From Paracoccus sp. (in: a-proteobacteria) (lineage in GTDB: Bacteria; Pseudomonadota; Alphaproteobacteria; Rhodobacterales; Rhodobacteraceae), in the NCBI RefSeq assembly GCF_030536915.1, contig NZ_JAUNPC010000024.1:1-38714 (forward strand): a stretch of DNA of 38,714 bases, given 5' to 3'. A program made the position numbers and the translations under genes. Positions 17,697 to 25,400 of this stretch are shown here, in pieces; within the stretch, counting starts at the first letter, position 1, and each line of letters starts with the position of its first letter. The notes under the pieces were generated by a model. That model saw only the letters and a list, made by a program, of their open reading frames with translations. It searched no databases and had not been told where the DNA came from.

Positions 17697-17725
17697 TTGA
17701 CGCGAGACGAGGTCGATCCTAGAAC
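17697..17725 (+). promoter_or_regulatory. Sigma-70-type promoter of lexA
   Basis: TTGACG (17697-17702), a spacer of exactly 17 nt and TAGAAC (17720-17725) form a good housekeeping promoter 42 bp upstream of the lexA start. The -10 overlaps the first half of the SOS box. Confidence 0.7.
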
Positions 17726-17736
17726 ATAAGCCGAAC
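17722..17736 (+). promoter_or_regulatory. LexA (SOS) box of lexA
   Basis: GAAC-ATAAGCC-GAAC is a direct repeat with a 7-nt gap. GTTC-N7-GTTC (this sequence on the other strand) is the established LexA site of Rhodobacter sphaeroides and relatives. It overlaps the -10 and likely start site, as expected for LexA autorepression. Confidence 0.88.
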
Positions 17737-17766: not shown

Positions 17767-18468
17767 GTGCTGACCAAGAAGCAGATCCAGTTGCTGGAAT
17801 TCATCCAGTCCCGCATGGCTCGCGATGGCGTTCCTCCCTCATTTGATGAAATGAAGCTGGCGCTTGACCTGCGCTCGAAATCGGGAATCCACCGGCTCGT
17901 GACTGCCCTTGAGGAACGCGGCTTCATCCGTCGCCTGCCCCACCGCGCCCGCGCGCTGGAAATCGTCCGCCTTCCTGAAGCGCTGATGCGGGGCGAGGCA
18001 GAGGCAGCCGGGTTCAAGCCCCGCGTCATCTCGAACGACCGTCCGCCGCGTCCGCGCGGGGCGATGCCGGTTGTGGACAGCCCGGCGGTGGAACTGCCGG
18101 TCATGGGGCGCATCGCCGCAGGGGTGCCGATCGAGGCGATCTCCGAGGTGTCGCATCACATCGCGGTGCCCGGGACCATGCTGACGGGCCGCGAACACCA
18201 CTACGCGCTGGAAGTGCGGGGCGATTCGATGATCGAGGCGGGGATAAACGATGGCGACGTGGTGGTGATCCGCGAACAGGACACGGCCGACAATGGCGAC
18301 ATCGTCGTGGCGCTTGTCGAGGGCGCCGAGGCCACGCTGAAGCGTTACCGCCGCCGCGGCGGGATGATCGCGCTGGAAGCGGCCAACGCGGCTTACGAGA
18401 CCCGCGTGCTGCCCGAGGACAAGGTCCGCATCCAGGGCCGGCTTGTCGGGCTGATCCGCAGCTACTGA
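17767..18468 (+). CDS. lexA: LexA repressor, SOS regulator
   Basis: LexA represses SOS genes and cleaves itself when RecA filaments form. The 233-aa protein has the winged helix N-terminal domain ([40 protein letters not shown]) and a longer alphaproteobacterial linker. The Ala118-Gly119 cleavage site lies in IAAGVP. The catalytic dyad is Ser154 (GDSMIEAGI) and Lys192 (EATLKRY). The start is the GTG at 17767, with GGGGG upstream near 17752. It has its own promoter with an SOS box, so it can be expressed independently of moeA. Confidence 0.97.
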
Positions 18469-18470
18469 AC

Positions 18471-18488
18471 GATCCTGCAGTCAGGATC
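18471..18488 (+). terminator. Inverted repeat after lexA, weak terminator candidate
   Basis: GATCCTG-CAGT-CAGGATC begins 2 bp after the lexA stop. The stem is perfect (7 bp), but there is no following T tract, so factor-independent termination is doubtful. Confidence 0.35.
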
Positions 18489-18846
18489 AGGCGCAGCGGG
18501 ACGGTTCTGTATTGCCTGCTCTGTCATGGGTGAACCTGACTGGCATGGGCCAGCGCATACCCGGTGCCAGGTGAAGGCGGCTGCAATCAGCACCGCCACA
18601 ATCCCTTTTACTGCTTGGCACACCTTGGCTGCGCCTGGATCAAGCGCATGAACGCGGGGGTGCCTCACCATGTCCAGCTATCGCCTGCTGCGATGATGGC
18701 TGCAGGTAGCCCTTGGTTCTCTCTGCACAGTCGTGCGCTGATATGGCTGCCGGACCGCACAGGCTGGGTGCAGAACTCACTGATCTGCTTCCGTCAGCCA
18801 AGTGCGAGCAGACGGAAGCGCCTTCCTGCGCTTCCGGTCCGAGGCA
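18489..18846. other. Gene-free stretch downstream of lexA
   Basis: There is no ORF with convincing codon usage or Shine-Dalgarno sequence on either strand. The third-position GC bias that marks genes elsewhere in the window is lost. A minus-strand frame with a hydrophobic run (QAVKGIVAVLIAAAFTW, about 18560-18615) exists, but its start and composition are poor. It may be a remnant. Confidence 0.5.
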
Positions 18847-18948
18847 TCAGACAAGGGCTGGAAGCCACAGCATCGCAATCGTGGCAATCGCAATCGAAGC
18901 AACACAGAGCATGTCGCCCAGAACTTCGATTTCAAAGGATGGTTTCAT
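18847..18948 (-). CDS. Candidate 33-aa single-span membrane peptide under an SOS box
   Basis: This 33-codon ORF begins MKPSFEIEVLGDML. The rest is a hydrophobic run of about 18 residues (CVASIAIATIAMLWLPAL), predicted to form one transmembrane helix with a short charged N-terminal part. GGAG lies 7 bp upstream of the ATG, an ideal Shine-Dalgarno sequence. A GTTC-N7-GTTC LexA-type box (19004-19018) lies 55 bp upstream on the same strand, and no other gene lies between. Small SOS-induced membrane peptides that block division are known (SidA, 29 aa, in Caulobacter). Similarity to SidA in sequence is not claimed; size, topology and regulation are alike. Expression is unproven. Confidence 0.55.
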   Translation of the reverse strand: MKPSFEIEVLGDMLCVASIAIATIAMLWLPALV

Positions 18949-19003
18949 CTCGGCGCTCCATCAATGTTAACGCTTTGTTCTCATCCCTGCGACCATCTGT
19001 AAA

Positions 19004-19018
19004 GAACTTTTAGCGAAC
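19004..19018 (-). promoter_or_regulatory. Second LexA-type (SOS) box
   Basis: The minus strand reads GTTC-GCTAAAA-GTTC, the same direct-repeat half-sites and 7-nt gap as the lexA box. It is immediately followed by TTTACA (19003-18998), a near-consensus -35. The matching -10 (GAACAA at a 17-nt spacing) is poor, so the promoter itself is not resolved. The only downstream ORF is the 33-codon one at 18847-18948. Confidence 0.65.
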
Positions 19019-19031
19019 ATGCGGACGGAAG

Positions 19032-19238
19032 CTATCGTGGCGGCGTGTTCCAGGGGCTGCGGTCCCCGGTTCTGACGACAACCTTCCCATTGATTTGCAG
19101 GGTGATTTCCTCAAGCGCCTTGGCCACCGACAACAGCAGGCAGGCCGTTCCCGAGCAATGACGGAAGATCGGGTGTCATCCTTGCGGCTCGACGGCACAG
19201 CGCAGCGCATTGATTGCGATTCGCAGCCTGCCTGCCAT
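19032..19238 (-). pseudogene. Small ORF of 67 sense codons interrupted by one in-frame TGA
   Basis: One reading frame runs 69 codons from the ATG at 19238 to TAG at 19032. It has a single TGA (19176-19178) after 20 codons. The first part reads MAGRLRIAINALRCAVEPQG. The second part, after the TGA, begins HPIFRHCSGTACLLLSVAKA and ends with a strand-like VVVRTGDRSPWNTPPR. Both halves look protein-like, so this may be a recently inactivated small gene. There is no strong Shine-Dalgarno sequence. The family is unrecognised. Confidence 0.35.
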
Positions 19239-19488
19239 TGACCGCCAGCAACGGCGATCAGTGTTCCGCATCCGCTTTCGCGAGGTTTCCAGACCCCGCA
19301 GCGCAGATAGGTGGCGCAATCATTGTCAGCGCCTGTAGCTGAACCATGGGCCTGTGAAGCGGTCGCACAGCTCCGGCCTGCATGTCATTGAGTTCGGGCA
19401 GGAATCCCGTTCAAGCAGGTTTCTGCAGCCTTGCAGAACAGGAAAAGGGATCAATGGCAGGCTGATGATGGCCCATGCGGGCTTTGAC
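19239..19488. other. Gene-free stretch between the interrupted ORF and recG
   Basis: There is no supported gene. The sequence is of mixed composition with multiple stops on both strands. The recG stop lies at 19489-19491. No clear terminator hairpin for recG was seen. Confidence 0.5.
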
Positions 19489-21624
19489 TCAGCCGGCCGC
19501 CATCAGGCCGATGGCGCGATCCTGTTCCATCAGCCACAGCAGCGTCCGAACCGCTCGTCCCCTCCCGCCCGAAAGATCGGGGTCCTGATCCAGCAGCAGG
19601 CGCGCGTCCTGCCTGGCCGTCGCCAGCAGCTCGGCTTGCCGTTCAAGGTCGGCCACGCGGAAACGCGGCAGCCCGGACTGAGCCGTCCCGATCACGTCGC
19701 CGGCGCCGCGCATGGCCAGATCCTCCTCGGCGATGCGGAAGCCGTCCTCGGTTTCGCGCAGGATCTGCAGGCGGCGGCGGGCGGATTCGGACAGCGGCTC
19801 GTGGTAGAGCAGAAGGCAGCTCGAGGCGCCTTCGCCCCTGCCCACCCGGCCGCGCAACTGGTGCAACTGCGCAAGGCCGAAACTTTCGGCGCGCTCGATC
19901 ACCATGATGGTCGCTTCGGGGACGTTGACGCCGACCTCGATCACCGTCGTGGCGACCAGAAGCTGCGCACGGCCCACGGCGAAGTCGGCCATGGCCGCGT
20001 CGCGCGCCTCGGGCGGCATCTGGCCGTGGACCAGCCGGACGAGGTCGCCAAATCGCGCCCGCAGCATCTGGAAGCGGTCCTCGGCGGCGGTCAGATCCAC
20101 GAGTTCGCTTTCCTCGACCAGCGGGCAGACCCAATAGGCCCGCGCACCCCGCGCCATGGCGGCCTGAAGCCGGGCCGCCACCTCCTCGATGCGCGAGTCG
20201 GGCAGCGCGGTCGTGACCACCGGCTTCCGGCCCGGTGGCTTTTCGTCCAGCACCGACAGGTCCATGTCGCCGTATTGCGCCAGCGCGAGACTGCGCGGAA
20301 TGGGGGTCGCCGTCATCACCAGCATATCGGGGCGCTGGCCCTTGGCCGCGAGTTCCAGCCGCTGCGCCACCCCGAAGCGGTGCTGTTCGTCGATGACGGC
20401 CAGCCGCAGGTCGTGGAAGGTGACGCCGGGCTGGAAGACGGCGTGGGTACCGACCAGCGCAGCGATGCGGCCCGCCGCAAGGTCCGACAGCAGGGTTTCG
20501 CGCGCCTCGCCCTTGTCGCGCCCGGTCAGCAGGGCGATGCGGACGCCGGCAGCCTCGGCCAGCGGCATCAGCGCGGGAAGATGCTGGCGGGCGAGGATTT
20601 CCGTCGGCGCCATCAGCACGCCCTGCCCGCCCGCTTCGACCGCCGCCAGCAAGGCCAGCGCAGCGACCAGCGTCTTGCCCGACCCCACGTCGCCCTGCAG
20701 CAGCCGGTTCATGCGCTGGGGGCTGGCCATGTCGGCGGTGATCTCGGCCACGGCGCGGGTCTGCGCAGCCGTGGGGGGCCAAGGCAGCGCATTCAGCACC
20801 CGGTCCTGCAGCCGTCCGTCGCCTTTGGTGATCCGGCCTGCCGTGCGCCGGCGGTCGCGGCGGACCAGCGCAAGGGTCATCTGGTGGGCCAGCAGCTCGT
20901 CATAGGCCAGCCGCTCGCGCGCGGGGGACAGCAGCGACAGGTCGTCCATGCCCCTGGGGTCATGCGCAGCCTTGATGGCGGAAAGCCAGTCGGGCCAGCT
21001 GCGCTGAGCCAGGACCGAGGGCTCGATCCAGTCCGGCAGCGACGGGGAGCGGTCGATCGCGGCGGCGGCGGCGCGGGCGACCACCCGCTGGGTCAGGGCG
21101 CCCGCCAGCGGGTAGACCGGCTCGAAGCCGGACGGCGGCGGATCCGAGGGCGGCAGAATGTGGTCGGGATGGACCATCTGGGCGAGGCCGTCGAACAGTT
21201 CGACCTTGCCCGAGACGACGCGCGTGGCACCGATGGGAAGCTGCGATTCGATCCAGGGCGCGCGGGCGTGGAAGAAGACCAGCGCGAGGTCGCCCGAGTC
21301 GTCCGCGCAGATCACCCGCCACGGGCGGCCCCGGCTTGCGGGCTGGTGGTGGCGGAGGACACGAACAGTGACGGTGGCGATCTCGGGCGGGCGCAGGTCT
21401 GCCAGACGTGCGACCGTGCGGCGCGCGATTCCCGCGACGGGCAGGTGGAACAGCAGGTCGCGCGGTCGGGTGACGTTCAGCGCGGCAAAGGCCTCGGCCG
21501 CCTTGGGGCCGACGCCGGGCAGGGTTTCCACGCCAGCAAACAGGGGGAACAGGACGGGTGGACGGCCCTTTGGTGCCGAGGGACGCGGCACGGCGGGTTC
21601 GGAAGGCTCGGACGCGCTTGCCAT
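19489..21624 (-). CDS. recG: ATP-dependent DNA helicase RecG
   Basis: RecG remodels stalled replication forks and branch-migrates Holliday junctions. The 711-aa protein has the N-terminal wedge (OB) domain with FAGVETLPGVGPKAAEAFAA and RPRDLLFHLP. Superfamily 2 helicase motifs follow: Walker A GDVGSGKTLVA at about residue 308, APTEILARQH, DEQH (VIDEQHRFG, about 411), TATPIPRSLAL, VHGQMPPEARD, TTVIEVGVNVPEA and QLRGRVGRGE. The start MASASEPSEP at 21624 is chosen to match the normal N-terminus. The frame stays open for another 134 codons upstream, but that part is low-quality coding sequence. It lies downstream of ligA on the same strand. Confidence 0.95.
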   Translation of the reverse strand: MASASEPSEPAVPRPSAPKGRPPVLFPLFAGVETLPGVGPKAAEAFAALNVTRPRDLLFHLPVAGIARRTVARLADLRPPEIATVTVRVLRHHQPASRGRPWRVICADDSGDLALVFFHARAPWIESQLPIGATRVVSGKVELFDGLAQMVHPDHILPPSDPPPSGFEPVYPLAGALTQRVVARAAAAAIDRSPSLPDWIEPSVLAQRSWPDWLSAIKAAHDPRGMDDLSLLSPARERLAYDELLAHQMTLALVRRDRRRTAGRITKGDGRLQDRVLNALPWPPTAAQTRAVAEITADMASPQRMNRLLQGDVGSGKTLVAALALLAAVEAGGQGVLMAPTEILARQHLPALMPLAEAAGVRIALLTGRDKGEARETLLSDLAAGRIAALVGTHAVFQPGVTFHDLRLAVIDEQHRFGVAQRLELAAKGQRPDMLVMTATPIPRSLALAQYGDMDLSVLDEKPPGRKPVVTTALPDSRIEEVAARLQAAMARGARAYWVCPLVEESELVDLTAAEDRFQMLRARFGDLVRLVHGQMPPEARDAAMADFAVGRAQLLVATTVIEVGVNVPEATIMVIERAESFGLAQLHQLRGRVGRGEGASSCLLLYHEPLSESARRRLQILRETEDGFRIAEEDLAMRGAGDVIGTAQSGLPRFRVADLERQAELLATARQDARLLLDQDPDLSGGRGRAVRTLLWLMEQDRAIGLMAAG

Positions 21625-22001
21625 GTCCGGCCCGTCCTTTCGTGCAGAGGGCGCTTCCCGCTGTTGCGTGGCGAAAAGACCGCCCTGCCTTTCCGCAGCG
21701 GCGGGATGCGCCGAAGCGCCGTTGTCTTCTGAATGCTGCGCCCTGCCCTTGGCGGGTCTTGCCAAGGCTTGGCCTTCCTCGGGCCGGGCGGATGCCCGGG
21801 TCCCCGCATCCGTGCAGGCGAGGTCACGATCCTCTGCAGGCCTGCCCGCGGGTCTTGGGGAGTTTGGTTCTTCTTCGGACCGGAAGGACGTCCGGGCCTT
21901 CTCGTGAAAGGCCGGGTCGTCCCGGTCCGGCCCGGTCCGCCGCGCAGGTCCAACCGCCCGCCCGCCCCCCGATGCAGGGCCACCGGGCGAACCGGCCCCC
22001 G
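21625..22001. other. Intergenic stretch between ligA and recG
   Basis: No gene is supported. The recG frame is open throughout, but with poor codon usage and no homology to RecG proteins. It contains several short inverted repeats, for example GCCAAG-G-CTTGGC at 21761-21773 and GGCCTT/AAGGCC near 21898-21916, which could be ligA terminators or recG leader structure. Confidence 0.5.

Positions 22002-25400
<3,399 letters not shown>

What the first reader, a model, noticed from the sequence alone, without database searches (positions are those of the whole stretch)
18847..19018. SOS-box-linked 33-aa membrane micro-ORF beside lexA: candidate SOS-induced inhibitor peptide
Seen: on the minus strand a GTTC-N7-GTTC box (19018-19004) with the same half-sites and spacing as the lexA box lies 55 bp upstream of a 33-codon ORF. 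The ORF has GGAG at ideal distance, and its product is a short charged start plus one transmembrane helix. Nothing else is downstream that the box could serve. Established: Rhodobacter LexA binds GTTC-N7-GTTC, and Caulobacter SidA (29 aa, membrane) is an SOS-induced division inhibitor. Inference: this is a lexA-linked SOS-induced membrane peptide, possibly acting on the divisome or membrane. Such short genes are normally missed by annotation.
Basis: partly seen in the sequence, partly recalled or inferred. Interest (0 to 1): 0.75.

Follow-up and report, generated by a model that had tools for sequence, protein, structure and literature searches.

The report
Conserved SOS-controlled membrane micropeptide beside recG
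Most bacteria examined in the Rhodobacter family carry, just after the DNA-repair gene recG, a tiny membrane-protein gene behind what looks like a DNA-damage switch; it may be a brake on cell division that curated protein-family libraries have missed.

Summary
The 33-codon ORF (18847-18948, minus) and its GTTC-N7-GTTC box are as described. Alone, the box is weak evidence (2 in the window, 0.67 expected). But the peptide belongs to a conserved family: 100 of 101 genus genomes and 357 of 394 family genomes, about one per genus. Purifying selection is clear (dN/dS 0.16; 52 of 52 disjoint pairs). An exact box lies upstream in 147 of 149 distinct loci found by peptide. The conserved neighbour is recG (150 of 155 loci), not lexA (6 of 155). 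The peptide has one predicted transmembrane helix, with Asp at its start (155 of 155) and Leu-Pro at its end (154 and 153 of 155). Four family libraries gave only isolated weak matches. Best reading: a LexA-repressed, damage-induced membrane micropeptide, most likely a late-divisome inhibitor that works like SidA. Coding and conservation are shown; LexA control is strongly inferred; the division target is inference. No expression or phenotype data were available.

The parts
18847..18948 (-). micropeptide gene, 33 codons plus TGA; one predicted transmembrane helix. Asp12, Leu27, Leu29 and Pro30 are the conserved positions; position 15 is Gly in 151 of 155 relatives but Cys here
19004..19018 (-). 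LexA box A, GTTCGCTAAAAGTTC, exact GTTC-N7-GTTC, directly abutting the -35-like element
   Evidence: exact box in 147 of 149 distinct loci
18998..19003 (-). -35-like element TTTACA
   Evidence: TTTAC follows the box in 129 of 147 loci
18974..18984 (-). conserved RTGAGAACAAA element, read as an extended -10 region (17 nt from TTTACA to GAACAA); unlike TATAAT
   Evidence: bases 35-44 after box start 92-100% conserved in 147 loci; its RTG is in random frame relative to the ORF; the sigma-70 consensus scan found nothing here
18966..18980 (+). LexA-like site B, GTTAACGCTTTGTTC (1 mismatch of 8), overlapping the -10 region
   Evidence: a site with at most 1 mismatch in 152 of 155 genes that have box A (149 of them at the same offset); three diverged loci have an exact site of this orientation in place of box A
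18956..18959 (-). Shine-Dalgarno GGAG, 7 nt before ATG
18813..18835 (-). possible hairpin after the ORF; no U tract, terminator function uncertain
   Evidence: z -1.65; 15 of 200 shuffles fold as well; not reported by the terminator scan
19489..22026 (-). recG, the conserved upstream neighbour (ORF as called 845 aa; the true start is probably further in)
   Evidence: (TIGR00643 637.9 bits, a little under the cut-off of 659.4)
17767..18468 (+). lexA, convergent neighbour here and in 5 other same-genus loci
17722..17736 (-). LexA box of lexA, reference operator

Best explanation
This is a conserved gene for a single-pass inner-membrane peptide of 31-45 aa. In undamaged cells LexA keeps it off by binding box A, next to the -35, and probably also site B, over the -10. 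DNA damage leads to LexA self-cleavage, the promoter fires, and a short mRNA with a Shine-Dalgarno sequence is translated. The peptide inserts as one helix. The conserved acidic residue at the start of the helix and the L-x-L-P at its end suggest a specific protein partner in the membrane. The most likely partner is the late divisome (FtsW/FtsI/FtsN), so that septation pauses during repair, as with Caulobacter SidA. Shown here: the ORF, coding selection, the conserved operator-promoter block, the recG linkage and the distribution. Strongly inferred: LexA control. Inferred: membrane insertion. Inferred and weaker: inhibition of division through FtsW/I/N.
For: Coding: pooled pN/pS 0.219 (JC dN/dS 0.164), pS>pN in 52 of 52 disjoint pairs; substitutions at codon positions 1/2/3 of 1165/419/3233 over 249 non-independent pairs (the flat pattern downstream comes from unaligned sequence and is only a rough control). 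Distribution: 100 of 101 genus genomes, 357 of 394 family genomes, 149 of 149 order genomes, all of the same family and 148 of them at least 90% complete. Operator: exact box in 147 of 149 loci; second site within one mismatch in 152 of 155 genes that have box A; in 39 close pairs the box/-35 block is 95.6% and the -10/site B block 91% identical against 61% for the spacer. Of 14 unmatched genomes whose recG end could be read, 9 still have an exact LexA-type box followed by a small hydrophobic ORF. lexA and recA of this genome carry the same type of box. Peptide: Asp in 155, Leu29 in 154, Pro30 in 153 of 155 aligned members; hydropathy peak of at least 1.6 in 153 of 154. Size and regulation match SOS membrane division inhibitors: SidA binds FtsW (PMC4211646, passages); YneA acts through FtsW TM7 (PMC13396833, abstract and passages). 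No hit on plasmids or phages with one 40-aa query.
Against: No expression, binding or phenotype data. Any LexA-controlled membrane effector would look the same, so the divisome target rests on analogy; the models of SidA, SosA and ChiZ on FtsW are called not of high confidence by their authors. Five followed genomes have neither box nor small hydrophobic ORF within 600 nt after recG, and 3 of these have lexA (G208, G153, G117), so it is not universal. Among diverged members found by position the Asp is Glu in 2 (L241, L242), and L250 lacks the motif. Charge does not settle the topology: mean net charge is near zero on both sides.
Confidence: 0.58

Rival explanations
1. SOS-induced membrane toxin of the TisB/DinQ type: the peptide perturbs the membrane and slows growth or promotes persistence, with or without an antisense RNA.
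For: Size, hydrophobicity and LexA-type operator fit; DinQ is a toxic SOS-regulated single-TM peptide with antisense RNAs (PMC3567139, start of abstract in listing). Two LexA-like sites suggest that leak is costly.
Against: Near-fixed chromosomal place: one match in 93 of the 100 matched genus genomes, and four second matches inspected (genus and family genomes) have no box. No plasmid or phage hit with one query. Box start to ATG is only 62-123 nt. No Rfam match in 18400-19500. Strict positions in the helix suggest a protein partner. An antisense RNA inside the ORF is not excluded.
Confidence: 0.17
2. SOS-induced regulator of another membrane protein (transporter, protease, respiratory complex, or gene-transfer-agent release), unrelated to division.
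For: Small single-TM proteins often modulate a larger membrane protein (recalled); the conserved Asp and L-x-L-P fit any specific partner. LexA is required for gene-transfer-agent production in Rhodobacter capsulatus (PMC9638019, passages).
Against: No candidate partner gene is linked: flanking genes after the ORF differ between the 10 loci looked at.
Confidence: 0.2
3. The conserved element is only a LexA operator or regulatory RNA, and the ORF is incidental.
For: The promoter block is more conserved than the ORF.
Against: Strong coding signature; profile E-values down to 5e-19; even where the profile failed, 9 of 14 readable recG ends keep a small hydrophobic ORF behind a LexA-type box (the ORFs were looked for after recG, so position was given).
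Confidence: 0.02
4. The peptide works with RecG, for example by bringing it to the membrane.
For: recG is upstream on the same strand in 150 of 155 loci.
Against: The operator and promoter-like block lie after the recG stop, so expression should differ; shared position alone is weak evidence.
Confidence: 0.03

Closest known systems
SidA of Caulobacter crescentus
   Same: very short (29 aa) LexA-repressed inner-membrane protein of an alphaproteobacterium (PMC4211646, passages)
YneA / SosA / ChiZ (Gram-positive SOS division inhibitors)
   Same: SOS-induced small membrane proteins; YneA blocks septal wall synthesis through FtsW
   Different: YneA and ChiZ carry a LysM domain and SosA an extended helix (PMC13396833, passages); this peptide ends a few residues after its helix
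TisB / DinQ of E. coli
   Same: SOS-induced hydrophobic single-TM peptides (TisB recalled; DinQ from the listing)
   Different: no antitoxin RNA seen, short leader, near-fixed locus
DidA of Caulobacter
   Same: small DNA-damage-induced TM division inhibitor
   Different: DidA is SOS-independent and binds FtsN (PMC4211646, passages); here a LexA-type operator is present

Membership tests
LexA (SOS) regulon of Rhodobacteraceae | GTTC-N7-GTTC operator at the promoter | tested here: met
   147 of 149 distinct loci, plus a second site
LexA (SOS) regulon of Rhodobacteraceae | LexA binding and RecA-dependent induction by DNA damage | not testable with these tools
   needs gel shift, ChIP or RNA-seq
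SidA family | sequence homology to Caulobacter SidA | tested here: inconclusive
SidA family | binds FtsW and blocks septation | not testable with these tools
   no assay possible
Small single-TM SOS membrane peptide (functional class) | under 50 aa, one hydrophobic helix, LexA-type operator | tested here: met
   31-45 aa in 155 genes; hydropathy 153 of 154; operator. By sequence only
Type I toxin (TisB/DinQ-like) | antisense RNA antitoxin or long structured leader | tested here: inconclusive
   no Rfam match; leader short; antisense RNA inside the ORF not excluded
YneA/ChiZ | LysM domain | tested here: not met
   33-aa product without a Pfam match
Any Pfam / NCBIfam / PHROG / PADLOC family | match above chance shared by the members | tested here: not met
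   isolated weak matches, at most 3 of 39 members (best E 0.0028); with 30 members, with 39

The most novel reading that the evidence does not exclude
An undescribed micropeptide family, kept next to recG in most sampled Rhodobacteraceae under a two-site LexA operator, is the SOS cell-division checkpoint of this whole family. Its conserved acidic residue at the helix start docks into a late-divisome membrane protein. It arose independently of SidA, YneA and SulA.
Probability: 0.48. Interest if true: 0.82.

Novelty: new variant of a known kind. Interest (0 to 1): 0.72.

Why it matters
I found no description of how Rhodobacteraceae, a large group with several model organisms, hold division during DNA damage (searches; open-licence papers only). 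A nearly fixed 31-45 aa gene with a LexA-type switch is one concrete candidate that is easy to delete. It also shows that a family-wide gene can be missing from curated protein-family libraries, probably because it is short. If it acts on FtsW/FtsI/FtsN, its strict residue pattern would help map how unrelated tiny helices switch off septal wall synthesis.

Tried and rejected
Box statistics in the window alone were too weak to decide. 'lexA-linked' was rejected as the general rule. The conserved RTGAGAACAAA might have been an upstream start codon; rejected because its frame relative to the ORF is random (of 155 genes: 42 in frame, 17 of these with a stop; 56 and 43 out of frame; 14 without the motif). 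Second matches in four genomes (L270-L273) lack a box and are not counted as copies. Plasmids and phages: no match at E<=1 with one 40-aa member; no positive control was run for so short a query. RNA family: none. PDB sequences: one match at E 1. Consensus sigma-70 promoter: none.

My first check of 14 unmatched genomes looked only for boxes in the GTTC direction and found 6 with box and peptide and 8 with neither. A recheck in both directions raised this to 9 with an exact box and a small hydrophobic ORF (L250 is doubtful by motif) and 5 with neither. A first count of conserved residues was anchored on the Asp and the Leu themselves, so it could not test them; the alignment replaces it.

Rows dropped: before the box counts, 9 loci scoring under 20 bits, L097 without a hit, L091 (outside the family), and duplicates (173 loci before merging). 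The 155-gene set requires box A and 24 bits, so L031 and L077 (no exact box) and L213 (no start chosen) are not in it. Only the 20 listed of 37 unmatched family genomes were followed: 16 had recG, 14 with a readable end. The genome sets overlap.

Full report
WHAT IS THERE. On the minus strand the order is recG (22026-19489), LexA box A (19018-19004), TTTACA (19003-18998), RTGAGAACAAA (18984-18974), GGAG (18959-18956) and a 33-codon ORF (18948-18847). lexA (17767-18468, plus strand) converges on it. Named relatives place it in Rhodobacteraceae; that the genus is Paracoccus is my guess and comes from no call.

CHANCE OR NOT. In the window alone, two GTTC-N7-GTTC matches against 0.67 expected mean little. 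The test is whether box and peptide travel together when only the peptide is searched for. tblastn of 33 residues hit 81 of 101 same-genus genomes at E<=1. A profile of 39 members (A2) hit 100 of 101 in the genus, the one miss being 71% complete; 357 of 394 in the family, about one genome per genus; and 149 of 149 drawn from the order, all of the same family. In the class 13 of 289 matched at E<=0.02: 4 are family members (E 2.5e-8 or better), and 9 lie at E 0.003-0.02, 7 of them inside open frames of 185 aa or more, and look like background. A scan of the species-genome collection confirmed 161 relatives and kept 80, with titles such as Phaeobacter, Ruegeria, Leisingera, Sulfitobacter, Rhodovulum and Frigidibacter, some unnamed Rhodobacteraceae or Alphaproteobacteria bins, and one Nocardioides marinus record that is probably mislabelled. 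That scan used one motif, which favours the Roseobacter-type members.

OPERATOR. Of 149 distinct loci, 147 have an exact box within 250 nt upstream of the match. Aligned on the box, the consensus is tGTTC.caAAT-GTTC-TcAaAAA-GTTC-TTTACa, about ten variable bases, then aA.RTGAGAACAAAg.ggCAAC. The GAAC-N7-CAAC part is a one-mismatch LexA site: within one mismatch in 152 of the 155 genes that have box A, exact in 6, and at the same offset (38) in 149 (offsets 34-42 scanned). In the window it is GTTAACGCTTTGTTC at 18966-18980, plus strand. Three diverged loci (L239, L241, L242) have box A and an exact second site, as read from their printed sequences, and three more (L245, L250, L252) have only an exact GAAC-N7-GAAC, just before the ORF. 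This makes site B a likely true LexA site. In 39 close pairs the box/-35 block is 95.6% and the -10/site B block 91% identical, the spacer between them 61%, the ORF 86% and the 250 nt after the stop 71-79%. lexA and recA of this genome carry the same type of box. That two sites mean costly leak is inference.

PEPTIDE. In 155 genes it is 31-45 aa, with ATG in 153. Substitutions fall mostly on third codon positions (1165/419/3233); pooled dN/dS is 0.164 and pS exceeds pN in 52 of 52 disjoint pairs. In an alignment of all 155, the window's Asp12 is Asp in 155, position 15 is Gly in 151 (Cys here), Leu27 is Leu in 152, position 28 is His in 108 and Trp in 38, Leu29 is Leu in 154 and Pro30 is Pro in 153. 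The profile that found these members favours such residues; in diverged members found only by position the Asp is Glu in 2 (L241, L242) and L250 lacks the motif. One hydrophobic stretch spans the C-terminal half (153 of 154 pass a hydropathy mean of 1.6). Net charge on either side averages near zero, so topology stays open.

NEIGHBOURHOOD AND GAPS. recG lies upstream on the same strand in 150 of 155 loci and lexA within the fetched flanks in 6, all of the window's genus; in 3 of the 5 loci without recG (L025, L026, L037) lexA is present. After the ORF the flanking genes differ; the longest ORF, a rough call, is on the opposite strand in 8 of 10 loci. Of 37 unmatched family genomes the 20 listed were followed: 16 have recG, and 14 have a readable recG end. 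Nine of these 14 have an exact LexA-type box followed by a small hydrophobic ORF that the profile missed; five have neither within 600 nt. Three of those five have lexA, so some SOS-proficient lineages seem to do without it at this place.

COPY NUMBER. Of the 100 matched genus genomes, 93 have one match. Four second matches were inspected (L270-L273, from genus and family genomes) and have no box. One 40-aa member found nothing in the plasmid and phage collections.

MECHANISM. LexA repression, release on DNA damage, translation of a single-helix membrane peptide and action on a membrane partner is the simplest chain. The divisome is the best candidate because unrelated SOS-induced small membrane proteins act there: SidA on FtsW (PMC4211646, passages); YneA through FtsW TM7, with low-confidence models placing SidA, SosA and ChiZ there too (PMC13396833, abstract and passages). 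In Caulobacter, loss of lexA causes filamentation through sidA (PMC12700426, passages). A TisB/DinQ-like toxin is a main rival; against it stand the near-fixed place, the short leader and the strict residue pattern.

KNOWN OR NEW. Pfam and NCBIfam (30 members) and PHROGs and PADLOC (39 members) gave only isolated weak matches, the best at E 0.0028 and never for more than 3 members. The Dinoroseobacter shibae study that predicts LexA sites has no occurrence of 'recG', 'small protein' or 'division inhibitor' in its main text (PMC6473078, term search). Ten searches of the open library listed no paper that, by title or start of abstract, describes this gene. The original SidA paper was not looked for by id, and a Rhodobacter capsulatus LexA study was not held. 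Small-protein catalogues may hold the sequence without a name; they were not searched. So it works like a known kind, but belongs to no family that I could match.

Noticed in passing
window 18966-18980: Second LexA-like site overlapping the -10 region; part of a promoter block conserved across the family.
   Followed up: yes
relatives, about 10 nt before box A (not in the window): A third GTTC half-site precedes box A in 107 of 155 genes; in L239 and L242 it is in perfect GTTC-N7 register.
   Followed up: partly
L245, L250, L252 (recG ends of G224, G189, G132): Only the site-B-type box GAAC-N7-GAAC lies between recG and a diverged small hydrophobic ORF; box A may be a later addition, or lost here.
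   Followed up: partly
window about 18700-18770, minus strand: A stretch between the micropeptide gene and lexA is well conserved with the closest relative L022; no Rfam match.
   Followed up: partly
L270, L271, L272, L273: Other small or C-terminal hydrophobic segments with a D-x-I/L-G-A-x-A-L motif but no LexA box; possibly an unrelated membrane-protein family.
   Followed up: partly
G266 (recG locus L243): A genome listed as 100% complete gave no lexA match at E<=1e-15 and has no exact box or small hydrophobic ORF after recG.
   Followed up: no
L176: Record titled Nocardioides marinus carries a Rhodobacteraceae-type locus; probably a mislabelled assembly.
   Followed up: no
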